A stretch of 52,544 nucleotides of DNA, taken from a virus. The DNA lies in the IMG/VR virus record IMGVR_UViG_3300021076_000027, positions 1-52,544 of that record. One strand, given 5' to 3'. Numbering within the stretch: the stretch's first letter is position 1; every line of letters starts with the position of its first letter. Position numbers and translations under genes: made by a program. The notes beneath the pieces were generated by a model. It was not told the origin of the DNA. It did no database searches and worked only from the letters and a program-made list of their open reading frames with translations. Below are positions 2,239 to 30,870 of this stretch, one piece after another.

Positions 2239-2244
2239 ACAGAG

Positions 2245-2250: not shown

Positions 2251-2328
2251 CCATCGCCCTGTCATACCCCGCCAGTGTCCCAACTAAGGGGTGATGATGA
2301 GGTACCGCCCGCAAAGGACTTGCTCACT

Positions 2329-3882: not shown

Positions 3883-3885
3883 AAT
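3880..3885 (+). promoter_or_regulatory. -10 element of HNH gene overlapping host stop codon
   Basis: TAGAAT lies 7 nt before ATG 3893. Its first three bases are the TAG stop of the preceding gene. Predicted transcription start is at or next to the ATG, so the transcript would be leaderless. Confidence 0.6.
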
Positions 3886-3892
3886 GGACTCT

Positions 3893-9124: not shown

Positions 9125-9127
9125 CAC

Positions 9128-11885: not shown

Positions 11886-14819
11886 ATGCCGGAACTGTGG
11901 ACGCCCTCAGGCTCCCGCCAGGTGCAGGCCGACGCCGATGTCTTCGGCGCCCTCGCTGACGCCACCGGACATCAGGACTACCACGCCCTAGCGAAGACTG
12001 CTCTCGCCAAGGGCAAGCAGGGCGCTGTCGATACGTCGGATGTCGTCGCTGAGATGCGAGCCAACCGCCGCATCACCAAGAACGCCTCTGGTGGCGTCAA
12101 CAGCGGACAGGGCATGGGTGGAGTAGGCCAGTTCTCGTTCGCTACCGCACGCCCTCGTGACCCGCTCTTCTACTGGCGCCAGAACAACCTCCCCTACGAC
12201 GTAGCGAAGGACGAGGAGCTAGAGAAGATCCGTGCGTTCTGCAATACACCAGATGCCCCGGTGTGGATGGCTGATTACTCGTTCAAGCCGATGGGTCAGA
12301 TTGTTGAAGGGGATGAGGTCATCGGCTGGGAGTATCGCACGGGACCACAGGGCGAGGTACGTAAGGTACTTGTCCGCACCCCCGTTCTAGCTATTCAACG
12401 TCGGATCGCCCCCGAGATTGTCAAGGTGACCTTCGAGTCTGGTGAGGTTATCCATTGCACACCGGACCACCTATGGGCCAATCCACATTACTCCCCTAAC
12501 CAAACTACCGGCTGGAAGCAGCCGGAATATCGGACGGCTGAGGTTGGACGAGAACTTGTTCGGATGGTTACCCCCACTCCCGAGTTGAGTTCCGAAAAGG
12601 AGTTGATAGTGGCCGCATGGCTGGGGGGCGTTTATGACGGTGAGGGATGTGGAGAAGGGATTGCTCAAAGCCAGAGTCATAATCCTGGGGTATGTCAACG
12701 GATCGCTGACTCACTGGACTTCCTGGGGATTCCATATACGCAGACTCCCGAGTCATTTTGGTTGCGGGTGCCTGGTCGTCGTCAAGGGGCCGCACAAGAC
12801 CTAGTGGACTTCTTGAACTGGACCAATCCGACAAGGCGGGTGACTGCGGCGATTGACAAGAGGTTGCTGGCTACACCGAATGGTGGACGAGAGAAGATCG
12901 TCAGTATCGAATCAGAAGGCTCCGGCGAAGTAGTTTCGATACAGACGGGAACTGGTAACTACACCGCTTGGGGTATTGCTTCCAAGAACTGCCGTCTGCT
13001 CTACATCACACACCCCGTCATCGCCTCGGCCATCGACATCTTCTCGAAGTACCCGCTCATCGGGATGGAGATGACCGGCAAGGACGACGAACTCAACGAC
13101 TTCTACGGCGACCTCTTCTTCGACCAGCTTGACTACGAGGAGTTCCTACTCGACGTGGGTCGAGAGTATTGGACCGTGGGCGAGGCATGGCCGCTCGGCA
13201 CCTTCAACGACACGCTCGGCGTGTGGGAGTCCGACGAACTCATCAACCCGGACGACGTTGAGGTCATTCGCTCACCGTTCCTCAAGGAGCCTCGCTTCAA
13301 GATGAAGCTCCCCGAGACGATCCGCAAGATCATCTTGGAGCGTGAGCCGAAGTGGGAGTACGAAGCCCTCATGAGGGTGTACCCCGAGCTTGCTCACTTC
13401 AGCCGTGAGGAGTCGAAGATGGATGTCTCCGGCGTCCTCCTCAAGCAGTTGAAGTTCAAGGCCGACAGCTTCCACCCCCGAGGCATCCCGATCCTGATGC
13501 GTGGCTTCCGTGCCGTCATTCAGGAAGAGATGCTCAACGCCGCCCAGGATGCCATCGCTGAGCGCCTCTACACCCCGATGATCGTGGCCAAGCTCGGTGC
13601 CTCCGCATCCGACCTCGGTACCACGCAGCCGTGGGTCCCGAACCAGGGCGACCTCGAAGCGTTCGAGGCATCGCTCGACGCCGCCCTCGCTGGCGACTTC
13701 CGAGTCCTGATCCACCACTTCGCCCTCGACATCTCGCAGGTGTTCGGCAAGGAGGCCATGCCGGACTTCAGCCCGGACTTCGACCGCCTCACCGACCGTC
13801 AGCTTCAGGTGTTCGGTCTGTCCCGCACGATGCTCAACGGCGCTGGCTCCGGTGAGACCTACGCCGCCGACGCCCTCAACCGAGACATCGTGACGCAGTT
13901 GCTCTCGACCTACCAGCGTAAGATCCAGCGCTTCTGGAAGAGCCGGGCCATGGTCGTGGCCGAGGCCCAGGAGCACTACGACTACGAAGAGCGCAACGGC
14001 ATCAAGTACCCGATCATGGAAGAGATCCTCGAAGTCAACGAGGAGACCGGCGAAGAGCGCATCGTGGAGCGACCGAAGCTCCTCATCCCCGACCTCACCT
14101 TCAAGACCATGAGCCTGGCCGACGAGGACAGCAACCAGCAGTTCATGGAAACCGTCCGTGCCTCTGGTGTGCCGATCTCGATGAAGACCCGACTGGTCAA
14201 CGTCGACATCGATCTGGACGAGGAAGTCGAGAAGGTCAAGGAAGAGCAGATCGAGCTTGCTGTCGCCGCACAGGAGACCCGCAAGGAGACCTACCTTGCC
14301 CTCCTCGCCGCTGGTCTGCCGATCCCCGACGACCTCAAGGAAGACTTCCAGCCGGTCGCTCAGACTCAGGGTCCCGTCGATGCTGCCGGTCAGCCGGAAG
14401 GTCCGCAGGTGCTCCCGGCCCTCGGACTGGACGAGCCTGCCCCGACCGACGCTCTGGCCCCGACCGACGAGGACATCGCCGCAGCCGAGGACGCAGAGGC
14501 CGATGAGGGTGAGGACCCCAACTCCTTCGGTGGTGACTCCCTCTCGGGCAAGATGCCTCCGGGTGATGACGATCAGACTGATGACGCTAGCGGCAGCACT
14601 ATCCCTCTTCCCCGCAACCAGCACGCTTCTCGACCGCCCGAGAGCGACGAGCAGCGAGGCAAGATGCCCAAGGGTTCTAGCCTCTCGACGGGTCCTCGCC
14701 ACGTCGGCGCCCGCAAGTTCCGCACCCTCGACCGAACTCAACCCCTGGCAGATCAGCTACGTGCGCCTGTCTGGCCCCATGAAAATGCAACTAAGGAACG
14801 TAATGAGACGACAGACTAG
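11886..14819 (+). CDS. portal protein precursor containing an intein
   Basis: A 977-residue precursor. Removing residues 119-368 leaves a 727-residue protein reading IRAFCRLLYITHPVIASAIDIFSKYP across the join, which looks like the conserved portal segment of large actinophages. Later portal-like features are FYGDLFFDQLDYEEFLLD, the long central helices, a GLSRTMLNGAGSGETYA loop, and the helical C-terminal region with DEEVEKVKEEQIE. The C-terminal ~130 residues are acidic and disordered, containing SFGGDSLSGKMPPGDD and STGPRHVGARKFR. The portal forms the dodecameric DNA gate and docks the terminase. It overlaps the next gene by 17 bases. Confidence 0.85.
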   Translation: MPELWTPSGSRQVQADADVFGALADATGHQDYHALAKTALAKGKQGAVDTSDVVAEMRANRRITKNASGGVNSGQGMGGVGQFSFATARPRDPLFYWRQNNLPYDVAKDEELEKIRAFCNTPDAPVWMADYSFKPMGQIVEGDEVIGWEYRTGPQGEVRKVLVRTPVLAIQRRIAPEIVKVTFESGEVIHCTPDHLWANPHYSPNQTTGWKQPEYRTAEVGRELVRMVTPTPELSSEKELIVAAWLGGVYDGEGCGEGIAQSQSHNPGVCQRIADSLDFLGIPYTQTPESFWLRVPGRRQGAAQDLVDFLNWTNPTRRVTAAIDKRLLATPNGGREKIVSIESEGSGEVVSIQTGTGNYTAWGIASKNCRLLYITHPVIASAIDIFSKYPLIGMEMTGKDDELNDFYGDLFFDQLDYEEFLLDVGREYWTVGEAWPLGTFNDTLGVWESDELINPDDVEVIRSPFLKEPRFKMKLPETIRKIILEREPKWEYEALMRVYPELAHFSREESKMDVSGVLLKQLKFKADSFHPRGIPILMRGFRAVIQEEMLNAAQDAIAERLYTPMIVAKLGASASDLGTTQPWVPNQGDLEAFEASLDAALAGDFRVLIHHFALDISQVFGKEAMPDFSPDFDRLTDRQLQVFGLSRTMLNGAGSGETYAADALNRDIVTQLLSTYQRKIQRFWKSRAMVVAEAQEHYDYEERNGIKYPIMEEILEVNEETGEERIVERPKLLIPDLTFKTMSLADEDSNQQFMETVRASGVPISMKTRLVNVDIDLDEEVEKVKEEQIELAVAAQETRKETYLALLAAGLPIPDDLKEDFQPVAQTQGPVDAAGQPEGPQVLPALGLDEPAPTDALAPTDEDIAAAEDAEADEGEDPNSFGGDSLSGKMPPGDDDQTDDASGSTIPLPRNQHASRPPESDEQRGKMPKGSSLSTGPRHVGARKFRTLDRTQPLADQLRAPVWPHENATKERNETTD
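12240..12989 (+). other. intein with LAGLIDADG endonuclease, in portal
   Basis: 250 residues inserted in frame in the portal. The N-terminal splice residue is Cys (CNTPDAPVWMAD, block A), and block B is VTFESGEVIHCTPDHLWA with the conserved TxxH. A LAGLIDADG-like helix (AAWLGGVYDGEG) marks an endonuclease of reduced size, as only one such motif is clear. The C-terminal splice block is NYTAWGIASKN followed by extein Cys, giving the N|C junction. The penultimate residue is Lys rather than the usual His, a known but less common variant. Base composition is more AT-rich than the flanking portal exteins. Confidence 0.9.
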
Positions 14820-15840
14820 CTACCGACGCCTTGATGCAGAGCTTCCCGCCTTCGGGACCCTCGCTACCACCCGTAGCGGTGAGGTGGGCGAGGTCATCGC
14901 TCATGAGGACGGACAGGCCCGCCTTCAGTTCGCCGGACACGTCCAAGGTCTCTACGCCCCGGACGAGATCACCTGGCAGCACGTTGGCGCACAGACCGAG
15001 GGCAAGTGGCAGACCGAGGGGTCCGAGCTTCACCTCGCTGACCGTGACTACCCTGAGCTAGCCGACATCCTCACCAAGCCCGCTCCCGCCATCGTGCAGG
15101 AGGGCAACGAGTGGGGCCGCACCGCCTCGAAGACAGCCAAGTATAGCTGTGACAACCCGAACTGCAAGGACACGGGACCGCTGAACCCTGAGCCGGGTGG
15201 TGGCAACACGATCGGACGTTGCCCCTCGTGCAACTCTCGGTGCTGGGCCGGATCTGCTAGCAGCGGTCAGCGCCCCATCAAGACAGCCAAGACCGCAGCC
15301 TCGCACTACCACTGTGGCAAGTGCCAGGAGACGCTGACCCGAGGCTCGAAGGAGCAGTTCGACAGCCCGACGTGCCCGAAGGGTGGCAAGCACACCTGGG
15401 AGGAAGGTGTCGGCGTCGACCCCAACCAGGGCAGCTTCAGTCTAGCCGCCTCGAAGACCGCCTCCGATGAGGTCGACGTGTTCGGCTACCCCTTCTCACG
15501 TGAGCAGGCTCAGAAGCTCCACGACTACCTCGACGGTCTCCCGAAGAACAAGATCGACTTCCGTCCGATGGACGACCTACTCAACGAGTCGAGTGCGTAC
15601 ACCGCTGACGGCTGGGGCATCAGCGACTACAACGATGACTGGAACGACGCTACCCGCTCACGTGGTGGTGGCTCCGGCTACACCGAGACGGTCTACGATC
15701 CTTTCAACGCCTTCACGCCGAAGGCTGGCGAGTGCCCGACGTGCTTCGGTGAGGGCGCCTTCAGCGAACTCAACCCTGACGGCAAGGGCTTCGGGGAAGA
15801 GAAGACCTGCCCCGACTGCGGTGGAACTGGTAAGGCATAG
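14803..15840 (+). CDS. zinc-ribbon head-region protein
   Basis: 345 residues. I choose ATG 14803 because AAGGA lies 5-6 nt upstream; it overlaps the portal by 17 bases. An N-terminal beta domain (ATTRSGEVGEVIAHEDGQARL...) is followed by three zinc modules: CDNPNCK...CPSCNSRC, YHCGKCQE...CPKGGKH, and a C-terminal DnaJ-like CPTCFGEG...CPDCGGTG. Junctions RTASKTAKY, KTAKTAASH and AASKTASDE separate the modules almost exactly. The domain after the third junction (VDVFGYPFSREQAQKLHDYL) is not recognised. Likely packaged or head-associated, by context. Confidence 0.68.
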   Translation: MRRQTSYRRLDAELPAFGTLATTRSGEVGEVIAHEDGQARLQFAGHVQGLYAPDEITWQHVGAQTEGKWQTEGSELHLADRDYPELADILTKPAPAIVQEGNEWGRTASKTAKYSCDNPNCKDTGPLNPEPGGGNTIGRCPSCNSRCWAGSASSGQRPIKTAKTAASHYHCGKCQETLTRGSKEQFDSPTCPKGGKHTWEEGVGVDPNQGSFSLAASKTASDEVDVFGYPFSREQAQKLHDYLDGLPKNKIDFRPMDDLLNESSAYTADGWGISDYNDDWNDATRSRGGGSGYTETVYDPFNAFTPKAGECPTCFGEGAFSELNPDGKGFGEEKTCPDCGGTGKA

Positions 15841-15845: not shown

Positions 15846-18800
15846 ATGCGCATCGGATGGACGATAGCATCGGGCGACATCGCTAACCTCTCGAACGACG
15901 AGCAGCAGGACCCGGATCAGGACAAGCTCGACGGCTTCACTGACACGAACGCCGAGCCGGACTTCGCCGCTGGCGCCGTGCAGGCTGCCTACGCAGGTGC
16001 GTGCCCCGGATCGCAGCAACCCGCCGAGCGCTTTGCCTTCATCCCTAACTGGGGATCCGCCAAGACTCGGATCGCTCACGCCTGTCCCGCTTGTGGCAAG
16101 GTGCTCTCTCCTCAGCGCAGCAAGAGCGACGAGGTGCACACGACGGCTCACAAGCCCGCCGACGAGACCTATCACGTGCGTATGGTCAACAAGCTCATGA
16201 ACGAAGGCTACGAGGCGAGTAACCCGCTAGTCGATCACCACGAGGGATGGGTCGGCAAGCTGAACCCCGGCGCCCACACCGCCGCCAACTCCGACGAGTT
16301 GGCCACCGAGCCGATGGGCTACGACGACAACGACATGGACGACTTCAACACCGGTACGACCGGCCCGACTGTCACGCAGACCGACATCAACCCCGACAAC
16401 TCCTTCTCCGGTTCGAGGAAGCTAGCGAGCGGCATTGTGGTTGAGGGATCGTGGACCGACGTGCAGTCGAAGGCGCAGCGCATCTACAAGGATGGCGGCG
16501 TCCGCATCATCTCCGTCACTGGCCCCTATGTCGCTGGGAACGTCAAGGGTTCCGAGGGGGTCTACGAGACGACCCTACAGCGAGGCCCGTCCGGTAGCAT
16601 CGATCAGTGGACCTGCTCGTGTCCGTGGTTCGCCTACTCCTTCGGTCGCTCGGGCCGCTGGAAGAAGTACGAAGGTCGCATGTGCTCGCACGCACTCGCC
16701 TTGCAGTACAAGGCGCAGAGCGAAGGCATGTTCGGTCGAGAGATCAAGGAAGACACGCAGTCGCCGGGCTGGGACAAGGAGATCACCCGCTACGAGGCCC
16801 CGCCGCCGAAGGACTGGCGTGCTAGCAAGACTGCCCTCTCTGGCAAGGTCTATCGAGGGGTCTCCTCCGAGCTAGACGTGCAGCGCACGATCAACGGCGA
16901 CGTGGACTTCTCGAACCCGTGGCTCAACACCTCCGGCGTCGGCATCTACGTCACCCTCGACCGCCAGCGTGCGCAGTCGTTCTCTCGGGGCTTCCTCATG
17001 ACGGGTACGATCCCCGGCAACCCTAAGGTTCTAGTTGAGAGTCACTACTGGGACGACATCGCCCGTCACGTCGACTCCCCGGAGTGGAAGCGCCTCAAGA
17101 GCCTCGATCAGGGAGACCCATCGTCATACGCCCGACACAACGGCTACGACATCGTTGCCTGTGACATGGACGGCAACCCTGACCTCGTTATCATCAACGC
17201 CAAGGTCGTGCACTGGGAGCCAGCACAGAAGATCTCTGCTCTAGCTGCCGTCCTCCCGACCCCGGCTACCAAGGCCTACCTTCGCCTCTTCGCCTCTTCG
17301 ACCGACGACGAGCCTCGTGCATCGGATGGTACGTGGACCAAGGGCATGGGCGACAAGAGCGACACCGGCTTCGGCAAGATCACGCCGGGTGAGGCCCGTG
17401 GCGACTCGAAGAAGGTCACCCCGGAAGAGTTCGATGAGCTTGCGGCGAAGGGCAAGGAGCACTATGATCGCCTCCTCGCTGACAAGCGTCCGACGACTGC
17501 CTTCAACGATGAGGACCAGTGGAAGGACATCTGCTCCGGCGCCTACAAGGCGGCTCAGGAGTCATGGGGTGGCCAGACTATCGACCCGGCCACCGGTAAG
17601 GCCATCGAGCGCTCTAAGGGCTTCTCCCTTCAGGTGCGTGCCCCTGGCGAGAAGCAGCTAACCGTTCCCGAGGATGCGTCCGAGGACGAGTTCAACGAGA
17701 TGATGGAGCGTGCCCGCAAGGAGTACGCCGAGAAGCTCAAGGGCAAGGAAGTCTACCTCGGCGTCTTCCGTGACGACGATAACAACCGCATCGACTTCGA
17801 CCCGGTGACCATCGTGGACACGGAGGCAGAGGTCGACTCGCTCGGAGCCTACACGCACGCAGTCGGCGGAGCCTACGACTTCGCCACCGGTAACGGCCAC
17901 TTCCCTCCGCACGTCGCCTCGCTGTCGTCGGACATCAAGGACGCCGTGCACGTCTGGTCAAGCATCAAGGTGAACAATCAGAAGTCCCTCCCGAACCCGG
18001 AGCACGACGGCTTCCGCTACGCCTTCCATCAGATCCTCGGTGACGTGGGCAGCTTCCGCTACAACGCCAGCAACCCGGAGTTCATGAAGGGTGAGCACGA
18101 GGCCACCGTCTTCCTCAAGGCCTTCATGGACAACCAGACCCCATCGCACCGCCCGCTCTACCGAGCCATCGGTCTGCACCCGGCTGCCTACATGGAGATC
18201 CTCTCTGCCGCTACCGCTGGCAGTCTCGATCTCCCCCCGGCTAGCTGGTCAGCCAACAAGAAGCTGACCGAGCAGTTCGGCCTCGACTACATGCAGGGCA
18301 CCAAGAAGTATGAAGAGCGCATCATCTTCGTGACCCGCCCCGGCACGAAGTCGTGGGCGCTCGGTCGCACGAGCATGACGGGCTACGAGCGAGAGCATAT
18401 CGTCGGTGGCCGCTTCCACGTTGTGAGCATCAAGTTCCCACCCGAGACGGACAACACCACGGTCATCACCCTTCAGGAGACGGAGGGCTGGCCTGAGGAC
18501 TTCGCCTCGACCGGCGACATGATCGAGCATATGGCCTTTGACTCCGCCGTGGTCAGCCCGCAGGATTCGAAGACAGCGGCGAAGGAACCCTATGGCTGGT
18601 GGCTGGCACCCGATGGCACGTTGATCGATGTCGCCAACTCCATGGACCACTTCTCGACTCCTCACCCCAAGGGGTCGATCCACCTCACCAACGAGTTGTG
18701 GGGGCTGGGAGGAGAGCAGGTTCGACTTCTGTCGGCGGGGGTCTACGGCTCCATCTCTACCGAGCAGATGAAGGCCCTCTACCGTCTCGTCTACTCCCAC

Positions 18801-20093
18801 GACTTCAAGCGCTTCTGCGGCTCGATCTACAGCGAGGATGGCGAAAGCCTCCCCGGCTTCCCCGGCATCTCGGCGTCGATGCAGAACCTCTCGAAGCAAG
18901 AGATCATCGACCAGCTTCGCAACCTTGGCCAGTTGGCTTCTCGTACCGGGCGCTACCTCACCATCGATGAGGCTCGTGCCGGTGCGATCGACTACTCGCT
19001 CCCGATGACCGCAGCCGACCACGTTGATCCGCACAAGGGCACGATGATCGCTGTCCGTCCTCCCGAGTCTGTGTGCCAGAGCCTTGCGCTTCCTGACTCC
19101 GGCGCCGAGCCGGTCGAGCAGCTTCACGTGACGCTGGCCTACATCGGCCCGGAGGCTTCAGAGGATCTCGACCTCGACCTTCTCCGCCAGATCGTAGATG
19201 CGCAGTCGCAACTCTCTCCTTACATCGCCGGGACCCTCTCCGGCCACGGCACCTTCGAGAACCCGGACGGGGATGTCTCCGTCGTCCTGGTCGACTCCGA
19301 GGAGCTACAGGTCGCCCGTGCGCTCCTGGTCGACGCCCTCGAACGAGCGGGCATCGAGGTCAGCCGAGAGCATGGCTTCGTTCCCCACATCACCCTGACC
19401 TACGGCGAGCACGGCCCGTTGCCCGCAGTCGACAAGGACGTGTTCTACTTCACCGAGTTCATCATCTCTCCGCCGTCCGGCGTGTGGGAACGCTACGAGC
19501 TAGCGACCAACATCTCGTTGGCCGCTTCCGTGGTGGTGGCCGATCAGGAGAACCCGCTCCCTCCGATCCACAACGCCGAGCCGTCCTGGGGGTCTAGCCC
19601 GATCAGTCAGGACGACCCCACGGGTAGCCCGCTCGATGCGGACGGGGAGACTAACACGGTACTCCCAGGAGCGCAAGCTGTCCTCGATGAGGAGCCAGAA
19701 GGCGCCCTCCCGAGCACTGATGGGGAAGCCGGAGCAGACGGAGCACAGTCCGATCAGGACTATTACCCCACCGACGAACAAGACAACACGCACCTGTACG
19801 GAGGTGAGGGAGCGGCTCCGAGCACGATAGCCTGGCTAGACCCTCGAATCTCCAACAAAGGAGTGAAAGGTAACGACGACATGGACATAGCCGCCGCCGC
19901 ACGCAACTTCTTGATGACCTCAACCGCTGTGAAGACATTCACGTATGCGGAGCAGCAGGAGATCATCCTCGAAGGCGAGGGAGTCACGGCATCCAACTTG
20001 GATCGTCTGAACCTCACTGGCACTCACTACGAAGCTTTGGAACAACAGCTTGCTACAGCCGAAGCCCTTGGAGAGCCTGTCGTCTGGTGGTAG
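15846..20093 (+). CDS. virion polyprotein: SWIM finger, two ADP-ribosyltransferase-like domains, 2H phosphoesterase
   Basis: A 1415-residue multidomain protein. A CPAC ribbon lies near residue 80. A SWIM zinc finger spans residues 257-282 (CSC...CSH). An ART-like domain spans ~334-460 (VYRG, GIYVTLD, HNGYDIV...VIINAKVV). A second, clearer R-S-E type ART spans ~690-865 with Arg773 in LYRA, SWS at 800-802, and the E-x-E pair E848/E850 in YEREHIVGGRF. A 2H phosphoesterase domain spans ~1064-1218 with HVT at 1094 and HIT at 1181. SKTA/SRKLA/SRTG junctions separate the modules. The ART family transfers ADP-ribose from NAD to proteins (compare T4 Alt, packaged in the head). 2H enzymes open 2',3'-cyclic phosphates or cleave cyclic oligonucleotides. 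Delivery with the DNA is inferred. Confidence 0.8.
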   Translation: MRIGWTIASGDIANLSNDEQQDPDQDKLDGFTDTNAEPDFAAGAVQAAYAGACPGSQQPAERFAFIPNWGSAKTRIAHACPACGKVLSPQRSKSDEVHTTAHKPADETYHVRMVNKLMNEGYEASNPLVDHHEGWVGKLNPGAHTAANSDELATEPMGYDDNDMDDFNTGTTGPTVTQTDINPDNSFSGSRKLASGIVVEGSWTDVQSKAQRIYKDGGVRIISVTGPYVAGNVKGSEGVYETTLQRGPSGSIDQWTCSCPWFAYSFGRSGRWKKYEGRMCSHALALQYKAQSEGMFGREIKEDTQSPGWDKEITRYEAPPPKDWRASKTALSGKVYRGVSSELDVQRTINGDVDFSNPWLNTSGVGIYVTLDRQRAQSFSRGFLMTGTIPGNPKVLVESHYWDDIARHVDSPEWKRLKSLDQGDPSSYARHNGYDIVACDMDGNPDLVIINAKVVHWEPAQKISALAAVLPTPATKAYLRLFASSTDDEPRASDGTWTKGMGDKSDTGFGKITPGEARGDSKKVTPEEFDELAAKGKEHYDRLLADKRPTTAFNDEDQWKDICSGAYKAAQESWGGQTIDPATGKAIERSKGFSLQVRAPGEKQLTVPEDASEDEFNEMMERARKEYAEKLKGKEVYLGVFRDDDNNRIDFDPVTIVDTEAEVDSLGAYTHAVGGAYDFATGNGHFPPHVASLSSDIKDAVHVWSSIKVNNQKSLPNPEHDGFRYAFHQILGDVGSFRYNASNPEFMKGEHEATVFLKAFMDNQTPSHRPLYRAIGLHPAAYMEILSAATAGSLDLPPASWSANKKLTEQFGLDYMQGTKKYEERIIFVTRPGTKSWALGRTSMTGYEREHIVGGRFHVVSIKFPPETDNTTVITLQETEGWPEDFASTGDMIEHMAFDSAVVSPQDSKTAAKEPYGWWLAPDGTLIDVANSMDHFSTPHPKGSIHLTNELWGLGGEQVRLLSAGVYGSISTEQMKALYRLVYSHDFKRFCGSIYSEDGESLPGFPGISASMQNLSKQEIIDQLRNLGQLASRTGRYLTIDEARAGAIDYSLPMTAADHVDPHKGTMIAVRPPESVCQSLALPDSGAEPVEQLHVTLAYIGPEASEDLDLDLLRQIVDAQSQLSPYIAGTLSGHGTFENPDGDVSVVLVDSEELQVARALLVDALERAGIEVSREHGFVPHITLTYGEHGPLPAVDKDVFYFTEFIISPPSGVWERYELATNISLAASVVVADQENPLPPIHNAEPSWGSSPISQDDPTGSPLDADGETNTVLPGAQAVLDEEPEGALPSTDGEAGADGAQSDQDYYPTDEQDNTHLYGGEGAAPSTIAWLDPRISNKGVKGNDDMDIAAAARNFLMTSTAVKTFTYAEQQEIILEGEGVTASNLDRLNLTGTHYEALEQQLATAEALGEPVVWW
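19851..19870 (+). repeat. start-associated palindromic element, copy 1
   Basis: TCCAACAAAGGAGTG plus AAAGG, with CTCC/GGAG complementarity. It lies 10 nt before an in-frame internal ATG (19881) inside the polyprotein gene. Confidence 0.6.
19881..20093 (+). CDS. possible nested product: C-terminal helical module of the polyprotein
   Basis: An in-frame ATG at 19881 is preceded by GGAG and AAAGG inside repeat copy 1. It would yield a 70-residue helical protein (MDIAAAARNFL...EALGEPVVWW) from the 3' end of the 15846 gene. The upstream linker is highly acidic and disordered, so a separate product is plausible. There is no independent proof, and it may simply be the terminal module of the long protein. 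Confidence 0.3.
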   Translation: MDIAAAARNFLMTSTAVKTFTYAEQQEIILEGEGVTASNLDRLNLTGTHYEALEQQLATAEALGEPVVWW

Positions 20094-20102: not shown

Positions 20103-20609
20103 ATGTCACGAGGCTCTACTAACTCTGCGAACGCCGCCAAGACTCGGTGTCCCAATGGCCATGCGTATACGCCAGAGAACACCTACAGCAATCACGGCAA
20201 ACGAGAGTGTCGCACTTGTAAGCGAGAGCGCAAAGCTGCGTGGGATGCGACTCACAAGGCCGAACAACGAGCGTATTTCCTAGCCTACTATCCTCTGCAT
20301 CGAGAGGAGATCCTCGCCAATAACTATCGGTGGATGCGAGTAGATCCCGAGCGAACCAAGCTGAAGAACCAGATCAGCAATGCTAGACGCAAGGAAGCTC
20401 CTGGTCATTGTACTCCTGAACAGCTAGCCGCTCGGATTGCCTTCTTCGGAGGGAAGTGTTGGATGTGTGGCGCTCCCCGGGAACATATCGACCATGTGAA
20501 GCCCCTGGCCAAGGGTGGCTCCAACTGGCCAGCCAATCTCCGACCAGCGTGTAGTACGTGTAACCTTCGGAAGTCGGACCAATGGCCCCTTCCGTCCCTG
20601 GCAGGCTAG
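20103..20609 (+). CDS. HNH homing endonuclease
   Basis: 168 residues. An N-terminal CPNGHAYTPENT...CRTC finger is followed by a basic helix and the HNH core at ~119-160: CWMCGAPREHIDHVKPLAKGG, NLRPACSTCN. The core is closely similar to that of the HNH gene at 3893 (GGSNWP, NLRPAC). Leaderless start from the -10 at 20091. It is inserted exactly after the polyprotein stop. The 3' end runs into a second copy of the start-associated element. Confidence 0.88.
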   Translation: MSRGSTNSANAAKTRCPNGHAYTPENTYSNHGKRECRTCKRERKAAWDATHKAEQRAYFLAYYPLHREEILANNYRWMRVDPERTKLKNQISNARRKEAPGHCTPEQLAARIAFFGGKCWMCGAPREHIDHVKPLAKGGSNWPANLRPACSTCNLRKSDQWPLPSLAG

Positions 20610-23255: not shown

Positions 23256-23544
23256 GATCGGCAACGCCGAAGAGGTCACGACCCTCCTCATCCCGAGCGA
23301 GTTCGACCTTGAACGTCGGTTCGACAATGCTGTCGCAGCGCTGAGTCTCCACTTGGTTGAAGATGGGCCTCGGTGGATTGAATCAGAAGATCTAGCGCTC
23401 AATCTTTTGCTAGAAGAGCACTATGGCCCGTCTTGCGGAAGTGATGTCCCATCGCACCAGGATGACTCTCCATCCCGCAATCTTTGCAGATCCGTCGCAT
23501 CGACGCAACAGGTGGACGGCGACCTTGGAGTGCTTGCCGGATAA
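23242..23544 (+). CDS. hypothetical protein, 3' end probably displaced by an inserted endonuclease gene
   Basis: GTG start at 23242 overlapping the previous gene. The first ~52 codons (MLKVRIGNAEEVTTLLIPSEFDLERRF...LALNLLLEE) read like a normal small soluble protein. From about 23399 the frame runs antisense through the 3' end of the GIY-YIG gene and becomes Ser/Cys-rich. I think the native C-terminus was lost or replaced when the endonuclease gene inserted. Function unknown. Confidence 0.5.
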   Translation: MLKVRIGNAEEVTTLLIPSEFDLERRFDNAVAALSLHLVEDGPRWIESEDLALNLLLEEHYGPSCGSDVPSHQDDSPSRNLCRSVASTQQVDGDLGVLAG

Positions 23545-23917
23545 GTGTTCGATGCTGATCGGACATCGGCTGCATCTTCTGGCCACTGCGGGTCGCAGAG
23601 ATACGAGCATTGCGCTCAGGGGTAGGGAGCGGATAAGTCCGGGGACGCCGAGAGTTTAGTGTGCGACCCATTCCTCGCTCAACATAGAAGTCATACCAGC
23701 GAGCTTCTGCTTCGGCTCCATCCTGGGTGATCTCTAGGAGTTGGATATGAAAGGCTGATCTACCAAGCTCTGCGATCTTTGCTCGGAGAAGAGGACAGAG
23801 GCTAGTGGACTTGACATGACCTTTCCAGCGCTGTGCAAGCGAGTTGATCGTACATCCCACGTACCAGTCATCATCGACCGAGTTGGTGATGAGGTAGATG
23901 TTGGAAGTCCTGTCCAT
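23399..23917 (-). CDS. GIY-YIG homing endonuclease with C-terminal zinc finger
   Basis: 172 residues on the reverse strand. The GIY-YIG core is NIYLITN...WYVGCT, the basic helix is LAQRWKGH, and the catalytic Glu is in AEAEARWYDFY. The C-terminal CKDCGMESHPGAMGHHFRKTGH is a zinc-finger-like DNA-binding tail, not NUMOD3. The ATG at 23917 is chosen from the TATAAT 6 nt upstream. It is inserted between two tail genes, converging on the truncated 23242 gene. Confidence 0.85.
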   Translation of the reverse strand: MDRTSNIYLITNSVDDDWYVGCTINSLAQRWKGHVKSTSLCPLLRAKIAELGRSAFHIQLLEITQDGAEAEARWYDFYVERGMGRTLNSRRPRTYPLPTPERNARISATRSGQKMQPMSDQHRTLIRQALQGRRPPVASMRRICKDCGMESHPGAMGHHFRKTGHSALLAKD

Positions 23918-23923
23918 GAGTCC

Positions 23924-23929
23924 ATTATA
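23924..23929 (-). promoter_or_regulatory. extended -10 promoter, leaderless GIY-YIG
   Basis: Reverse strand TGCTATAAT: TGn plus a perfect TATAAT, 6 nt before the ATG at 23917. Confidence 0.75.
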
Positions 23930-23943
23930 GCACCTAAGAGATG
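23929..23943 (+). repeat. start-associated palindromic element, copy 3
   Basis: AGCACCTAAGAGATG, ending in the candidate ATG at 23941. It abuts the -10 of the reverse GIY-YIG gene. It is a more divergent copy than those at 26707 and 26799. Confidence 0.4.
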
Positions 23944-24375
23944 AGATCTCGTAGGTGTGACCCCACACAAGGTAAGGTGATTCCCATTAGGACGAATGCA
24001 GGAGCCGACTGGCAGGCCGGTGTCATGGCCGACACCGCCAACTCCAATACGGGCACTTACGCCCCGGCCAACTACATCGCTCTCACGGCAGACTCGGGTG
24101 CTCCGGTCGACACGGACACCACGTTGCCCGGCGAGCTAGAGACAGGCGGCTCCGGTACGCTGTCCCGCACGCAGGCCACCTACGCCCACACCACCGGTTC
24201 GAGCACCTACACGCTGACGAACCTCTTCACGTCGGACGCCTCTGTGACCGTCGCCAAGGTCGGGATCTTCAACGACCCGGACACTGGCACGCTCGTGTTC
24301 GAGGATCTCTTCGGCGTCCCGGCTGTGCTCTACTCCGGCGACCAACTTCTCGTGGTCAGCACCGTCAACTTCTAG
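23941..24375 (+). CDS. virion protein (tail/decoration type)
   Basis: 144 residues. The core from GADWQAGVMAD onward is a Thr/Ser/Gly-rich beta protein (TGTYAPANYIALTADSGAP...SRTQATYAHTTGSSTYTLTNLFTSDASVTVAKVGIFND). Its pattern resembles that of the protein at 35991. The start is uncertain: ATG 23941 abuts the repeat element, while GTG 23977 has AAGG just upstream. The 5' end may have been disturbed by the adjacent GIY-YIG insertion. The 3' end overlaps the reverse-strand kinase gene by 4 bases. Confidence 0.65.
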   Translation: MRSRRCDPTQGKVIPIRTNAGADWQAGVMADTANSNTGTYAPANYIALTADSGAPVDTDTTLPGELETGGSGTLSRTQATYAHTTGSSTYTLTNLFTSDASVTVAKVGIFNDPDTGTLVFEDLFGVPAVLYSGDQLLVVSTVNF

Positions 24376-24952: not shown

Positions 24953-25450
24953 ATGGTGCAAGTAGCTTACGAGATCTATCTTCTCTCTGCGCCGGGGTTC
25001 TGGTATGTGGGATCGACTTCCATAGGTGTCGAACGTCGCCTACAACGCCACCTTAGTGGTAGAGGAGGAGCTAAGAAGCTCTATGCCAAGATACAAGAGT
25101 TGGGCGCAGCAGCCTTTACCCTGACTGTCGTTGAGAGAGCACGAGGAAACCCGACCGAGGCCGAGCAATGCTGGTATGACTTCTTCGTAAGTGTTGGCTC
25201 TGGACAACCTCTTCAGCAACGACCGGGAGGTTACCCTGACCGTGCCGGTAAGCCCGCTTGGAACCGTGGCATCTCACCCACGCCGGAGACCGTAGCCAAG
25301 CGGCAGGCTTCCTGGGCGGCGACTAAACCCCCGGCGTGCCCTCGGGGTCATCTCTATGATGAGGAGAATACTCTCTTCTACCCTAATGGTCGGCGGTGTA
25401 GGCAGTGCAACATTGACCGTTGCAAAGCCCGACGCAGTAGGTTAGACTGA
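24953..25450 (+). CDS. GIY-YIG homing endonuclease with HNH-type zinc finger tail
   Basis: 165 residues. The GIY-YIG domain (YEIYLLSAPGFWYVGST, basic LQRHL helix, catalytic Glu in PTEAEQCWYDFF) fills the first 90 residues. The tail CPRGHLYDEENT...CRQCNIDRC is the same finger that opens the HNH gene at 20103 (CPNGHAYTPENT...CRTC), so a targeting module has moved between nuclease families. Leaderless from a TTGACA/TAAGAT promoter. Its stop overlaps the -10 of the next gene. Confidence 0.87.
   Translation: MVQVAYEIYLLSAPGFWYVGSTSIGVERRLQRHLSGRGGAKKLYAKIQELGAAAFTLTVVERARGNPTEAEQCWYDFFVSVGSGQPLQQRPGGYPDRAGKPAWNRGISPTPETVAKRQASWAATKPPACPRGHLYDEENTLFYPNGRRCRQCNIDRCKARRSRLD
25420..25448 (+). promoter_or_regulatory. 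promoter of leaderless DUF6011-like gene
   Basis: TTGCAA (25420-25425), a 17-nt spacer, TAGACT (25443-25448), then 6 nt to ATG 25455. The last T of the -10 is the first base of the upstream TGA stop. Confidence 0.6.
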
Positions 25451-26815: not shown

Positions 26816-29800
26816 ATGAGCATCCTCAAGACTACCTCCTTCCAGATCTTGAGCGCTTCGATGGCTGGTCAGTCGGAACGCACGTTCAAGACCGCTCACC
26901 GGGCCGAGTTCGATCACGTCGAGCGCCGACCCGGCTACCTGTACGTCCGTTCCCGAGCCATCTCCTCTCGCATCAACGAGAACTTCGACGGCTTCGACGC
27001 TGACGAGATCGCCAAGGGCTACCAGACGTTCATGGGCAAGCCCGTGTTCGTCTCGCACCACAACTCGAACCACCGACGTGCCCGAGGCGCCATTGTCGCC
27101 GTGGCGCTCCACGAGGACCACCTAGCTACCGGCGAGCCGGATACCTGGGTAGAGGTTCTCATGGAGGTCGATGCGGTCAACTTCCCGAAGCTGGCCCAGG
27201 CCATCATCGCCGGAGAAGTCGCACGCACCTCGATGGGTTGCGACGTAGCCTACTCGTCCTGCACCTTCTGCGGCAACAAGGCCTACACCGAGGCCGAGTA
27301 TTGCAAGCACATCCCCCGCCTCAAGGGCAAGCGCATCCGTCGAGTGGACGCCAAGACCGGCGCAAGCTCGATGGTGCTCGTGGCCGAGCAGTGTTTCGGG
27401 TTGCATTTCTTTGAGAACTCCCTCCTGGTCGAGGAGCCTGCCGACCCTTCTGCTTTTTGCCTGGGCACAGATTGGGTGGATTCAGATATGACTCCACACC
27501 ATGCCAGTGCGAATAGCATGGATAGTTCCATCGCTTACGCCGAAGCGATTGCCAATATCCCTCAGCGTGAGTTGTCCACGACGAGTGCGTCCTCTCCCGA
27601 CCGCAACCTGGGGAAGCAAGTCTCGCTTGATGATGAGGACTTCTTCTTCGGTCAGCACGTGAGCAGCATTGCGTACACCGGAAGCGCTACGCCCCCGCTC
27701 CACCATGTCGGTCGAGTTGTCGGCGTTGGTACCGAGCAGCCAGTGGGCAGGATTGTGGCAGAGAGGAACATCGCAGGTATGGCGAACGACCAGTCCTTCG
27801 GGGATTGGGCCGACGATCTGCTCGTATCCCCATCTGTGGGAGCGGACGGAGCTTCGCTTAGCGTCGGACAGCGAGAAGCGTCCATAGCCCGAGTCGAAGA
27901 CACCCCCGGTCCAAAGCCAGCATTCGTCCTCACCACGGACGGCGACCTTCGACCAGTAGCGCTCAATCTCGGACATAGTGAAGCGGTCATTCCTAGCCAT
28001 GTGCCCCATCTTAGCACGTTCGAGGCAGGCTTCATCCTCACGGCTGACAGCAATGATCTCCCCGAACTGAAGATGCCACCGCCGCCGTACCGTGTGAACT
28101 GTCGCAACTGCGGCCAGCAGAGCGTGACGAACAAGAACCACCCGAAGTGCGAGTCCTGTGGCGACCTCCATGTGTCCCCCGTGCGCCGTGCATCGAAGGA
28201 AGCCGCCACCCAAGAAGAGGCCGAGCGTACCGGCCCGTGCCCTCACTGTGGTGGCAAGCTCTTCTCGAATGGCTTCCCCGGCACCTCCCCGTACTGCGGC
28301 TCGTGCCAGACCCACATCCCGCTGAAGCCCAAGGCATCGTCCTTCGGTGGCAAGCGTGTTGCTAGCCTCCACAAGCGTGCTGTCAATCAGTGCATCCGCC
28401 ACTACGAGCACGAGGTTGGACCCAATGACCTCACGTGTCCTGTATGCGAGTCCCTGATGTACTATGGGACTCCCACCACCAAGATGCCTGATGACCAATA
28501 TCTCGAATGGCTCTCCAAGCAGCCCTACGAGGCTCGTAAGCACGCCATCAACGAGACCATCGCTCCGCCCGAGGTCGACACCCTCCGTGCATCCGAGTGC
28601 CCTATCTGTGGCTCCGACGCCTACAACGGCGAGGAGTGCCCGGTGTGCATGTTCATCAAGCCGCCCGACATGTTCATGGACCCGGACCTCGAAGCTGCTC
28701 AGAATGCCGACCTCCGCCAGGATGAGGCCCAGGACGGTCTAGCCGTTGGCGACCAGGTAGGCAACGATCACCTACAGGGCCAGACCCCGGTGGGCGACGA
28801 CCTCATGGCTGCTGGCCAAGAGGGTGACCTTCAGTGCGACTCCTGTGGTGCCGTACAGCCCGGCCAGGCCTCCGCAGGGACCGACAACGCCGTCAACGGA
28901 GCACCCACTACACAGCCTACTTCACAGCCTCCTACACAGCCCGGAGCAGAGCCGCCGCCGCCCGTCAACGACGAGTCCATGCCGCTGGCTCAGGGACCGC
29001 CCGAGGCCGACGACGTGCCGCCCGCTGGCAAGGAGCTTCCGAAGCCGAAGGACGGCGAGAACGACGACGGCCAGGACGACGGCTCGAAGGCCGAGACCAA
29101 GCCGAAGGGCGACCCCGCCGACAAGGGCAAGGTCGAGTCCGACATCGATGCCGGGAAGTCCGACACCACCAAGCCGACCGAGGACGAGGCCGTCGACACC
29201 CTACAGAAGGATCTCAAGCCAGGCGACCCATGCCCGGTCTGCGACGGCAAGGGCAAGCTTCAGCCCAAGGCTGACGACAAGAAGGACGACCAGAAGGTCG
29301 AAGACAAGGATAGCAAGGACGACAAGGAGGACGGACCACCCTGGCAAAAGGGCGATAACTCCTCCAAAGAAGTGAAGGCTCAGTCGTCACTCAACCACGA
29401 CACCCCAGGAGTATCTGATATGGCAGCCCCCACCGTCAAGGTTCTAGCATCGCACCAAGCCGAGATTCGTCGCCTCAAGGCGGAGAACGCTCAGCTTCGT
29501 CGTTCCGTGAACTACATCGCCGCAGCCGTTGGCATCACCCGCTTCGCTGACGACCAGAACCCGGCAGAGCCGATCCCGCAGCCCGCAGGTGGCGCTCCGT
29601 CCGAGACCTCGGAAGAGGCCATGAACGCAGCTACTCGTGTCAACGTGCAGGAGATCGGCTCGACGCCGGTCAACGGTGTTGGCGCAGATGCGACCACCAC
29701 GGTGGATCAGGTCGGCGGCATCAATGCTGACACCCCGTACTCGATCAACACCGAGGTCACCACCCCGGTGTCTGGTACCGAGACCCGCATCCCTCTCGAC

Positions 29801-30232
29801 AAGGTTCGCACCTTGCCGGAGATCCAGTTCGGCAACCCCCTTGTGCCGGACACCGCCTTCCCTCTCGAAGGCCCCTTCGCTGAGAAGGCAACGCTAGGCA
29901 GCAAGGGCCGCACCTACGCCGCTCTTCGCCTCGCACGTCTCCGCAAGGCTGCGGGCGTCGATGAGACTGGCTCCGACGAGATCGTTGTTGCCAACGCCAT
30001 CGACACCAACGCATCGCTGAGCGACGGCGCCATTGCGCAGGAGATCGACATCCTCACGAAGGTCGTCACCGCCACGCAGGCACCGACGCCCCGCCAGGCA
30101 AGCCGTCGTCTCGTCCCGCAGTCCTCTGCTGGTGTCGAGCGCACGATCCCGTCCGTAGCAGTAGGTGAAGGTCTCACGTCATTCACGGCAGCAGCCGCAA
30201 GTGACGACGACGCATTCGCATTCTGCGACTAA
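26816..30232 (+). CDS. prohead protease fused to zinc-ribbon and scaffold regions
   Basis: 1138 residues. Residues 1-215 look like a prohead protease: GKPVFVSHHN supplies the likely catalytic His (81/82), ARTSMGCDV the Ser (139), and a CTFC...CKH zinc site follows (149-165). Residues ~216-400 come from DNA that on the other strand encodes an HNH endonuclease. Ribbons CRNCGQQ...CESCGD, CPHCGGK...CGSC and CPVCES follow, then a long acidic Pro/Lys linker and a helical C-terminus (from 29420) resembling a scaffold, with a coiled coil (VKVLASHQAEIRRLKAENAQLRR). The capsid genes follow directly. The long frame is intact, so one polyprotein is possible, cut at basic sites such as VRRASKEA. Confidence 0.75.
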   Translation: MSILKTTSFQILSASMAGQSERTFKTAHRAEFDHVERRPGYLYVRSRAISSRINENFDGFDADEIAKGYQTFMGKPVFVSHHNSNHRRARGAIVAVALHEDHLATGEPDTWVEVLMEVDAVNFPKLAQAIIAGEVARTSMGCDVAYSSCTFCGNKAYTEAEYCKHIPRLKGKRIRRVDAKTGASSMVLVAEQCFGLHFFENSLLVEEPADPSAFCLGTDWVDSDMTPHHASANSMDSSIAYAEAIANIPQRELSTTSASSPDRNLGKQVSLDDEDFFFGQHVSSIAYTGSATPPLHHVGRVVGVGTEQPVGRIVAERNIAGMANDQSFGDWADDLLVSPSVGADGASLSVGQREASIARVEDTPGPKPAFVLTTDGDLRPVALNLGHSEAVIPSHVPHLSTFEAGFILTADSNDLPELKMPPPPYRVNCRNCGQQSVTNKNHPKCESCGDLHVSPVRRASKEAATQEEAERTGPCPHCGGKLFSNGFPGTSPYCGSCQTHIPLKPKASSFGGKRVASLHKRAVNQCIRHYEHEVGPNDLTCPVCESLMYYGTPTTKMPDDQYLEWLSKQPYEARKHAINETIAPPEVDTLRASECPICGSDAYNGEECPVCMFIKPPDMFMDPDLEAAQNADLRQDEAQDGLAVGDQVGNDHLQGQTPVGDDLMAAGQEGDLQCDSCGAVQPGQASAGTDNAVNGAPTTQPTSQPPTQPGAEPPPPVNDESMPLAQGPPEADDVPPAGKELPKPKDGENDDGQDDGSKAETKPKGDPADKGKVESDIDAGKSDTTKPTEDEAVDTLQKDLKPGDPCPVCDGKGKLQPKADDKKDDQKVEDKDSKDDKEDGPPWQKGDNSSKEVKAQSSLNHDTPGVSDMAAPTVKVLASHQAEIRRLKAENAQLRRSVNYIAAAVGITRFADDQNPAEPIPQPAGGAPSETSEEAMNAATRVNVQEIGSTPVNGVGADATTTVDQVGGINADTPYSINTEVTTPVSGTETRIPLDKVRTLPEIQFGNPLVPDTAFPLEGPFAEKATLGSKGRTYAALRLARLRKAAGVDETGSDEIVVANAIDTNASLSDGAIAQEIDILTKVVTATQAPTPRQASRRLVPQSSAGVERTIPSVAVGEGLTSFTAAAASDDDAFAFCD
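27482..28000 (-). CDS. HNH homing endonuclease nested antisense in the protease gene
   Basis: 172 residues. Core: CWLWTGGVFDSGYGRF, RSHRWGYEQIVGPIPEG, VRHTCDVPLCHNPAHWLLGTNADNSTDM, the HNH_3-type pattern with His, Asn and His. A C-terminal helix-turn-helix (TLRDIGNRFGVSDGTIHAIRTG) probably recognises DNA. The ATG at 28000 is chosen from the TGCTAAGAT extended -10 placed 7 nt upstream. The opposite strand remains open in the protease frame throughout, so the insertion adds ~185 codons to that protein instead of ending it. Confidence 0.87.
   Translation of the reverse strand: MARNDRFTMSEIERYWSKVAVRGEDECWLWTGGVFDSGYGRFSLSDAKRSSVRSHRWGYEQIVGPIPEGLVVRHTCDVPLCHNPAHWLLGTNADNSTDMVERGRSASGVRNAAHVLTEEEVLIIKRDLLPQVAVGRGRTRRGQLTLRDIGNRFGVSDGTIHAIRTGMVWSHI
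28008..28013 (-). promoter_or_regulatory. extended -10 promoter of antisense HNH gene
   Basis: Reverse strand TGCTAAGAT (TGn extension plus TAAGAT), 7 nt before the ATG at 28000; leaderless transcript predicted. Confidence 0.7.
29360..29378 (+). repeat. start-associated palindromic element, copy 6
   Basis: TCCTCCAAAGAAGTG plus AAGG inside the protease/scaffold gene, 41 nt before the internal ATG at 29420. Its presence before an internal start mirrors the copies before ordinary gene starts. Confidence 0.6.
29420..30232 (+). CDS. nested scaffold protein (internal start in the protease gene)
   Basis: An in-frame ATG with AGGAG 8 nt upstream would give a 270-residue scaffold from the 3' end of the protease gene, as lambda Nu3 is nested in C. 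The product starts MAAPTVKV and has an immediate coiled coil (IRRLKAENAQLRRSV). Ala/Thr/Pro-rich regions and a helical C-terminal part (ALRLARLRKAAGVDE, EIDILTKVV) follow, ending in an acidic, aromatic tail, typical of scaffolds that grip the capsid protein. A repeat copy upstream supports a real start. It lies directly before the decoration and capsid genes. Confidence 0.55.
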   Translation: MAAPTVKVLASHQAEIRRLKAENAQLRRSVNYIAAAVGITRFADDQNPAEPIPQPAGGAPSETSEEAMNAATRVNVQEIGSTPVNGVGADATTTVDQVGGINADTPYSINTEVTTPVSGTETRIPLDKVRTLPEIQFGNPLVPDTAFPLEGPFAEKATLGSKGRTYAALRLARLRKAAGVDETGSDEIVVANAIDTNASLSDGAIAQEIDILTKVVTATQAPTPRQASRRLVPQSSAGVERTIPSVAVGEGLTSFTAAAASDDDAFAFCD

Positions 30233-30315: not shown

Positions 30316-30870
30316 ATGTTCCGAACTAACCTCGCAACGAGCTACCTGAAGCGCACGCTCCGTCCGCTCTACGGTTGGACGCAGGCTACGCCGAAGTCGG
30401 GCTTCCTCGATCCGTCGTGGGACCGCACTGTCGGCCTGTACCCCGGCTTCGCACTGACGAAGACCGTGGGCAACAACTACGTCCCGCTCGGCACCGCCAA
30501 CGGCTCGGCCTCCAAGGCCAGCCAGCAGCCTGCCGGTCTCCTCGGCCAGTGGGTCGGCGGCGCAGGTATCGATGAGCTTCTCGAAAGCGGCGTCAACGCC
30601 CTCTCGGTGTGGGTCCTCGGTCCCGATGCTGAGTTCGAGGTTCTCGCTCCCGCCTTCGACGCCGTGACCGGTGGCTCATGGGCCACTGCCGATGTCGTCG
30701 GCAACGATGGTGTCGACACCCTCATCTACGCATACGTTGACACCGTTCCGGGTCAGCTTTGCCTCGCTGGTGGCTCTGGCGGAACGGTCTCGTCCTCACC
30801 GGTCGCCCGTCTCGTGCAGGTCGAGTCCACCAACTCCATCATCATCGCTGGCCTACGAGGCACTCACTAA
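30316..30870 (+). CDS. head decoration/capsid-associated protein
   Basis: 184 residues with a good ribosome site (AAAGGGAG). A basic N-terminus (FRTNLATSYLKRTLRPLYGW) is followed by a Gly/Ala/Val-rich beta domain (GFALTKTVGNNYVPLGTANG...LSVWVLGPDAEFEVLAPAFD). This fits a decoration protein of the type found just upstream of major capsid genes in actinophages. No Cys. Position between scaffold and capsid supports the role. The specific family is not identified. Confidence 0.65.
   Translation: MFRTNLATSYLKRTLRPLYGWTQATPKSGFLDPSWDRTVGLYPGFALTKTVGNNYVPLGTANGSASKASQQPAGLLGQWVGGAGIDELLESGVNALSVWVLGPDAEFEVLAPAFDAVTGGSWATADVVGNDGVDTLIYAYVDTVPGQLCLAGGSGGTVSSSPVARLVQVESTNSIIIAGLRGTH

What the first reader, a model, noticed from the sequence alone, without database searches (positions are those of the whole stretch)
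15846..20093. One virion-operon protein combines ADP-ribosyltransferase and 2H phosphoesterase domains
The 1415-residue protein has an R-S-E ART with E848-x-E850 and Arg773, a second ART-like domain at ~334-460, a SWIM finger, and a 2H domain with both H-x-T motifs. T4 Alt shows that ARTs can be packaged and injected. 2H enzymes include RNA end-processing and cyclic-oligonucleotide-degrading (anti-CBASS Acb1-like) types. Together these could modify host proteins and counter defence signals or process RNA at the moment of entry.
Basis: partly seen in the sequence, partly recalled or inferred. Interest (0 to 1): 0.85.

Follow-up and report, generated by a model that had tools for sequence, protein, structure and literature searches.

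The report
Modular phage head protein with enzymes
A virus of actinobacteria encodes, among the genes that build its head, one long protein that carries a sure RNA-end-processing-type enzyme domain and a probable ADP-ribosyltransferase on a conserved zinc-finger core, which fits a known but little-tested idea that viruses load their heads with multi-enzyme cargo to inject with the DNA.

Summary
The 1415-aa ORF (15846-20093) is real and lies between portal (11886-14819) and head-protease/scaffold (26816-30232) genes, the slot held by gp96 in phage Myrna. The 2H domain is certain (both H-x-T motifs, Pfam above cut-off), as is the SWIM finger (CxC...CxH). The main ART (R773, S800-W-S802, E848-x-E850) has no family hit, and AlphaFold gave no usable model. 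It is still probable: one actinophage head-operon protein shares the R/S/E pattern, and profile-profile alignment to 41 phage DRAT-like ARTs beats nearly all decoys. The second ART (334-460) is unsupported. Relatives share only the SWIM region and a C-terminal 'GTHYEA' element, with exchangeable modules (Nudix, GNAT, 2H) around them. Elsewhere the 2H is often fused to protease, portal or MuF; one such protein also carries an exotoxin-family ART with MuF and GNAT, another an ART-PolyVal. Best reading: a head-packaged, DNA-co-injected polyvalent effector, as Iyer et al. proposed (2017, 2022), on a SWIM carrier I found undescribed. Packaging, catalysis and targets are untested. A relation to anti-CBASS Acb1 is not supported; RNA cyclic-phosphodiesterase relatives score far better.

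The parts
15846..20093 (+). 1415-aa modular head-operon protein (P0001)
   Evidence: ORF; syntenic with Myrna gp96, Pupper gp93, RedWattleHog gp12
16452..16721 (+). SWIM-containing conserved core (residues 203-292); C257-x-C259 ... C280-x-H282
   Evidence: PF04434 above cut-off; PHROG 30974/2940 E 1.9e-25/2.5e-21; invariant W203, C257, C259, W261, C280, H282 in 6 family members
16845..17225 (+). claimed second ART-like module (residues 334-460); YRG 336-338, Y368, D435
   Evidence: no family, tblastn or profile support: unproven
17256..17910 (+). region of unknown function (about residues 471-688)
   Evidence: no match in Pfam, PHROGs, NCBIfam or fetched loci
18141..18443 (+). probable R-S-E ADP-ribosyltransferase (residues 766-866); R773, S800-W-S802, E848-x-E850
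   Evidence: motifs conserved with DSL-LC01; hhalign to 41 phage DRAT-like ARTs above nearly all decoys; no HMMER or fold support
18561..19010 (+). region of unknown function (about residues 906-1055)
   Evidence: no match
19032..19460 (+). 2H phosphoesterase (residues 1063-1205); H1094-x-T1096 and H1181-x-T1183
   Evidence: PF13563 E 2.8e-8 above cut-off; TIGR02258 E 6e-6 below cut-off; H and T of the first motif invariant and of the second nearly invariant in a 28-sequence alignment
19881..20090 (+). conserved C-terminal element (about residues 1346-1415) with GTHYEA
   Evidence: shared with L002/L015, L003, L014, L018/L023, L019-L022, L024, Myrna, Pupper, RedWattleHog
16275..16283 (+). candidate linker motif HTA (144-146)
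   Evidence: function inferred
16827..16835 (+). candidate linker motif KTA (328-330), between SWIM and the 334-460 region
   Evidence: function inferred
18570..18578 (+). candidate linker motif KTA (909-911), after the ART
   Evidence: function inferred
14803..15840 (+). upstream ORF (345 aa) rich in KTA motifs and zinc-ribbon-like pieces; possible split-off N-terminal module of the family
   Evidence: 5 [KRH]TA against 0.3 expected; weak similarity around DYPEL..IL to the L014 N-terminus (E 0.007)
11886..14819 (+). portal protein
   Evidence: phrog_2833 E 7.5e-149
26816..30232 (+). head maturation protease/scaffold-type protein
   Evidence: phrog_2774 E 1.4e-57 and phrog_18299 E 4.6e-18
30316..30870 (+). 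minor-capsid-type protein in the position of Myrna gp98
   Evidence: phrog_2783 E 2e-29; same slot as gp98; gp98 role from PMC7150772
30898..31890 (+). major capsid protein
   Evidence: phrog_2522 E 4.8e-98; 58% identity to RedWattleHog MCP

Best explanation
A head-packaged polyvalent effector of a Myrna/RedWattleHog-like actinophage. A conserved carrier (SWIM zinc-finger region plus C-terminal GTHYEA element) is made with the head proteins and taken into the prohead. It bears exchangeable enzyme modules; here a 2H phosphoesterase (shown by sequence) and a probable R-S-E mono-ADP-ribosyltransferase. On DNA ejection the modules, whole or cut at linker motifs by the head protease, enter the host. 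There the ART would modify host proteins (E-x-E suggests arginine) and the 2H would process 2',3'-cyclic-phosphate RNA ends or a nucleotide signal. Shown: ORF, 2H, SWIM, gene context, module exchange. Probable: ART2. Inferred: packaging, cleavage, injection, catalysis, targets.
For: Synteny between portal and protease/MCP genes. 2H and SWIM above Pfam cut-offs. ART2 motifs conserved in another head-operon protein and profile-profile global score above all 138 decoys and all 138 shuffles. Family relatives keep the SWIM and C-terminal core and swap Nudix, GNAT and 2H modules. Of 62 aligned viral-contig ORFs chosen by their 2H, 14 also match the XkdF protease, 9 portal and 9 MuF models. Same kinds of domain in one protein in L064 and L094. 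Published precedent: T4 Alt is packaged and injected; 2H, ART and Nudix fusions to head proteins (PMC5512222, PMC9503650).
Against: No virion proteomics found for any member of the SWIM family. No fold model. ART2 invisible to HMMER libraries and to hmmsearch with the DRAT-like profile; one decoy exceeded its local score; adding the DSL-LC01 relative lowered the profile score. The carrier role of the SWIM core is inferred from conservation only. In Myrna and Pupper the 2H is a separate gene next to the SWIM gene, so association does not require fusion.
Confidence: 0.6

Rival explanations
1. Structural or assembly protein whose enzyme domains act during morphogenesis or late infection, not after injection: for example, the 2H repairs tRNA or processes RNA in the producing cell and the protein never leaves with the DNA.
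For: 2H proteins of this kind occur as separate genes near ThyX in Myrna and Pupper; the 2H best resembles RNA 2',3'-cyclic phosphodiesterases; PMC9503650 notes possible tRNA-repair roles for phage 2H domains.
Against: In most sampled viral loci the 2H sits in large ORFs, many fused to portal, MuF or protease, hard to explain for a purely cytosolic RNA-repair enzyme; PMC5512222 reports that these 2H versions never associate with RNA ligases.
Confidence: 0.25
2. The 766-866 region is not an ART; the R, S and E motifs are coincidental, and the protein is a SWIM-2H head protein with unknown modules.
For: No Pfam, PHROG, NCBIfam or PDB match; hmmsearch with a 41-sequence phage ART profile scores only 1.5 bits for the best domain; AlphaFold uninformative.
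Against: Conservation of LYRAIG, S-[WF]-[ST]-A and E-x-E-H with DSL-LC01 in a head-operon protein; hhalign global score 27.2 against at most 22.3 in 138 decoys and 9.1 in 138 shuffles, with R, S-W-S and E-x-E aligned.
Confidence: 0.2
3. The 2H domain is an anti-CBASS (Acb1-type) nuclease that destroys cyclic oligonucleotide signals at entry.
For: Acb1 is a 2H-type enzyme and weak similarity exists (Pfam Acb1 E 0.2; PDB Acb1 E 0.035 with the family profile); PMC5512222 and PMC9503650 propose nucleotide-signal degradation for head-fused 2H domains.
Against: Acb1 model far below cut-off; cyclic phosphodiesterase relatives score many orders better.
Confidence: 0.12

Closest known systems
Polyvalent proteins (Iyer, Burroughs, Anand, de Souza, Aravind 2017, PMC5512222)
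   Same: Several disparate enzyme domains in one polypeptide, encoded with virion genes; 2H and ART are among the listed domains
   Different: Carrier here is a SWIM/GTHYEA core, described in no paper found; the ART is of R-S-E type, whereas the 2017 paper places HYD2-type ARTs in polyvalent proteins and says the Alt/VIP2 family is not in genuine ones
T4 Alt (packaged, injected ART)
   Same: R-S-E motif pattern; late/head gene context
   Different: No significant sequence similarity detected in a two-row comparison with a T4-like Alt2 (a weak test); no 2H or SWIM module is reported for Alt in the papers read
MuF/portal/protease fusions with ART, Nudix or 2H (PMC9503650)
   Same: Same enzyme families fused to head-assembly proteins; L064 joins 2H, MuF and ART
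   Different: No MuF, portal or protease domain found in P0001
Myrna gp96 / Pupper gp93 / RedWattleHog gp12 (phrog_2940 and phrog_30974 regions)
   Same: Same position, SWIM region and C-terminal element
   Different: No ART or 2H found in them; 2H is a neighbouring gene in Myrna and Pupper
RNA 2',3'-cyclic phosphodiesterase ThpR/LigT type (PDB 1vdx, 5h7e, 1iuh)
   Same: 2H family with two H-x-T motifs; best PDB sequence matches
   Different: Stand-alone cellular enzymes; P0001 is below the TIGR02258 cut-off (26.2 of 65.7 bits)

Membership tests
2H phosphoesterase superfamily | Two H-x-[TS] motifs | tested here: met
   H1094-V-T1096 and H1181-I-T1183; conserved in alignment of 28
2H phosphoesterase superfamily | Profile match above curated cut-off | tested here: met
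   PF13563 34.4 bits, cut-off 27
Anti-CBASS Acb1 | Pfam Acb1 (PF23474) above cut-off | tested here: not met
   11.8 bits, cut-off 27
RNA 2',3'-cyclic phosphodiesterase (TIGR02258 equivalog) | Equivalog cut-off | tested here: not met
   26.2 bits, cut-off 65.7
R-S-E ADP-ribosyltransferase (766-866) | Arg, S-x-S and E-x-E motifs in order | tested here: met
   R773, S800-W-S802, E848-x-E850; R, first S and both E conserved in DSL-LC01
R-S-E ADP-ribosyltransferase (766-866) | Family-level sequence match | tested here: inconclusive
   hhalign above nearly all decoys, HMMER negative
R-S-E ADP-ribosyltransferase (766-866) | ART fold | tested here: inconclusive
   AlphaFold pLDDT 32
Second ART (334-460), HYD2/ART-PolyVal type | His, Tyr, Asp active-site pattern | tested here: not met
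   R337 where His is expected; Y368 and D435 present (pattern)
Second ART (334-460), HYD2/ART-PolyVal type | Profile match | tested here: not met
   Pfam none; hhalign to a three-sequence PolyVal set at decoy level (weak test)
SWIM zinc finger | CxC...CxH and Pfam cut-off | tested here: met
   C257, C259, C280, H282; 22.4 bits, cut-off 19.6
Polyvalent proteins | Several disparate enzymatic domains in one polypeptide | tested here: inconclusive
   2H is sure and ART2 only probable, so the second enzyme is not certain
Polyvalent proteins | Encoded among virion/packaging genes | tested here: met
Polyvalent proteins | Packaged in the virion and injected | not testable with these tools
   no proteomic data found

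The most novel reading that the evidence does not exclude
The SWIM + GTHYEA core is an undescribed virion cargo carrier of large actinophages onto which enzyme cassettes (ART, 2H, Nudix, GNAT, others) are swapped, and which the head protease cuts at recurring [KRH]TA-type linkers so that each module is released inside the capsid before injection.
Probability: 0.3. Interest if true: 0.75.

Novelty: new variant of a known kind. Interest (0 to 1): 0.5.

Why it matters
If true, Myrna-like mycobacteriophages and their relatives, many already sequenced and some easy to grow, carry a packaged effector platform that can be tested by proteomics in laboratory phages. It would extend the T4 Alt paradigm to actinophages and give candidates for entry-time modification of host proteins and of RNA or signal nucleotides. 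It also gives a possible role to a conserved head-operon gene that is usually annotated LysM-like or hypothetical.

Tried and rejected
AlphaFold of ART2 (two-row alignment) and of 334-460 (single sequence): both unusable; fold search was therefore not run. The search for related loci with the ART2 region and with 334-460 alone gave no relatives. Profile search of about 400 actinobacterial genomes with the ART2 pair alignment and the DRAT-like pair alignment found nothing; no positive control genome, so uninformative. hhalign with two-row alignments against T4-like Alt2/L064 and L037/SP-15 was too weak to score. The first decoy run timed out and two runs failed in scripting. An ART-PolyVal set of three sequences did not support 334-460. 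Acb1 assignment rejected. PADLOC gave only weak matches of no clear meaning.

Full report
Observation. The ORF at 15846-20093 on the + strand encodes 1415 residues with third-position GC of 0.80, like the other long window genes. I also note S800-W-S802, the S of an R-S-E pattern. Pfam finds the 2H (PF13563, E 2.8e-8) and the SWIM (PF04434, E 8.7e-5), both above cut-off, and no ART.

Setting. The window is a 52.5-kb virus record. Its capsid protein is 58% identical to that of Gordonia phage RedWattleHog and 56% to Myrna. The order portal, P0001, protease/scaffold, minor-capsid-type protein, major capsid protein matches Myrna gp89, gp96, gp97, gp98, gp99 and the same slots in Pupper and RedWattleHog, apart from extra genes, including several in the window between P0001 and the protease. 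Myrna gp98 is the minor capsid protein seen by cryo-EM (PMC7150772). The virion mass spectrometry described in that paper's main text is on Rosebush bands, so gp96 is untested there; I did not read its supplements.

The family. P0001 shares with Myrna gp96, Pupper gp93, RedWattleHog gp12 and viral-contig proteins a SWIM region and a C-terminal element ending in GTHYEA. The rest varies. L020, L021 and L024 carry Nudix; L024 also GNAT and an intein-like insertion; L022 carries 2H and DUF7178. By eye, L002/L015 has an Arr-like stretch and L021 an ART-like one; I ran no profile test of these two, and Pfam gave no ART there. In Myrna and Pupper the 2H is a separate neighbouring gene. So the 2H and the SWIM protein are linked either as neighbours or as a fusion.

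The 2H domain. tblastn finds relatives in 349 phage records, nearly all of actinobacterial hosts. From the viral contigs I aligned 62 ORFs containing it; all 62 match the Pfam 2H, 14 also XkdF protease, 9 portal, 9 MuF, 4 Mu-like protease, 4 S78 protease, 3 GNAT, one ADPrib_exo_Tox, one ART-PolyVal. These loci were chosen by similarity to the 2H, so the counts describe that sample. The profile of 28 2H domains matches solved proteins of the RNA 2',3'-cyclic phosphodiesterase type (1vdx E 1e-12, 5h7e E 5e-10, 1iuh E 1e-8) and Acb1 only at E 0.035. The substrate cannot be read from this.

The main ART. One phage record matches at E about 1: Actinomycetia phage DSL-LC01, inside a 3289-aa protein between portal and capsid maturation protease. 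The aligned 100 residues keep LYRAIG, S-[WF]-[ST]-A and E-x-E-H. A second route: L037, whose next gene holds 2H and Zeta-toxin domains, has a region with a sub-cut-off Pfam DRAT match (E 1.7e-4); 47 viral loci encode relatives of it or are the same locus. hhalign of P0001 756-880 to 41 of these gives a global score of 27.2 with R, S-W-S and E-x-E aligned. Of 138 segments drawn from other ORFs of the fetched phage loci none reaches it globally (best 22.3) and one exceeds the local score (28.3 against 24.1); 138 shuffles stay at or below 9.1 and 17.3. The first 60 decoys, drawn from window proteins, reached 10.4 and 20.3. Against this, hmmsearch with the same profile scores 1.5 bits for the best domain, the two-row window + DSL-LC01 alignment scored lower than the window alone, and AlphaFold failed. 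I call it probable, about 0.75. E-x-E is typical of arginine-directed R-S-E enzymes (general knowledge).

The second ART (334-460). The order Y336-R337-G338, Y368, D435 recalls the His-Tyr-Asp pattern described for ARTs of polyvalent proteins, but His is replaced by Arg, no family or tblastn match exists, and my small ART-PolyVal comparison is at decoy level. Not supported.

Precedents. L064 (2023 aa) joins 2H, MuF, GNAT, an ADPrib_exo_Tox ART (E 5.3e-10) and DUF3626; a stretch cut from its ART part finds T4 Alt-like proteins by tblastn at E 4e-3, over less than half of the stretch. L094 (1269 aa) joins ART-PolyVal, GNAT and 2H. Iyer et al. 2017 predicted that multi-domain proteins with ART, 2H and others are packaged and injected (PMC5512222), and the 2022 survey adds head-fused Nudix, ART and 2H (PMC9503650). 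A search for SWIM domain with bacteriophage and capsid found no description of this carrier; the library holds open-licence papers only, so this is weak evidence of novelty.

Linkers. [KRH]TA is enriched in window genes 2227-3882 (4 against 0.3 expected), 4444-7083 (7 against 0.9), 14803-15840 (5 against 0.3) and 45473-46687 (3 against 0.3), none of 1000 shuffles reaching these; it is absent from the capsid and tail-type genes tested. In P0001 itself it is 3 against about 1 (P 0.09), not significant. Across the SWIM family it is 41 against 11 expected, though members are related and so not independent. I picked the motif by eye from these same proteins before counting, so the P values are optimistic. 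In P0001 two of the three sites lie between recognised or claimed modules (328, 909). In L094 the peptide TATAFF or a variant recurs before modules and near the N-terminus. Head proteases of other large phages cut head proteins, ejected ones among them, at short motifs (PMC10052503), so cleavage is a reasonable guess; nothing here shows it.

Conclusion. A polyvalent-type head-operon protein on an apparently undescribed SWIM carrier: a new variant of a known kind. Its interest lies in the testable carrier and module exchange more than in the ART-2H pairing, which already has examples.

Noticed in passing
L094:4710-8519 and L104:4977-8498: A short peptide like TA[TA]xFFRQA recurs near the N-terminus and before several modules (31-nt repeats in L094, 3 copies; a similar stretch also at the start of the upstream gene at 3059); looks like a reiterated targeting or cleavage tag.
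   Followed up: partly
window 2227-10552, 14803-15840, 45473-46687: Large proteins with zinc-ribbon-like pieces (by eye) joined by [KRH]TA linkers, enriched over shuffles in four genes and absent from the capsid and tail-type genes tested.
   Followed up: partly
window 11886-14819: Portal ORF of 977 aa matches its PHROG over 787 residues against 555 profile positions; an intein-like insert (by eye, GEVIHCTPDHLW and SKNC) seems to lie in it.
   Followed up: no
window 1744-2283 (-), 23399-23968 (-), 24953-25450, 32384-32944: Several GIY-YIG-like small ORFs (YWYVGST and similar) scattered among head genes, by eye; with an HNH gene at 20103-20609 (Pfam).
   Followed up: no
L024:7844-11923: Intein-like Hint domain inserted inside the SWIM finger of a family member (Pfam, mostly below cut-off).
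   Followed up: no
L007 (Salgado gp18) and L009 (Kovu gp20): Arthrobacter phage 'RNA ligase' genes carry the 2H next to a region that looks XkdF-protease-like by eye; annotations such as aldolase class I on relatives look wrong.
   Followed up: partly
L094:4710-8519, residues 969-994 of the ORF: Weak KptA/Tpt1-like match (E 0.21) shortly before the 2H, a possible RNA-repair pair.
   Followed up: no
L013:4411-14280 (DSL-LC01): 3289-aa head-operon protein; besides the ART-like region it holds a kinase-like stretch by eye, unmatched in Pfam.
   Followed up: no
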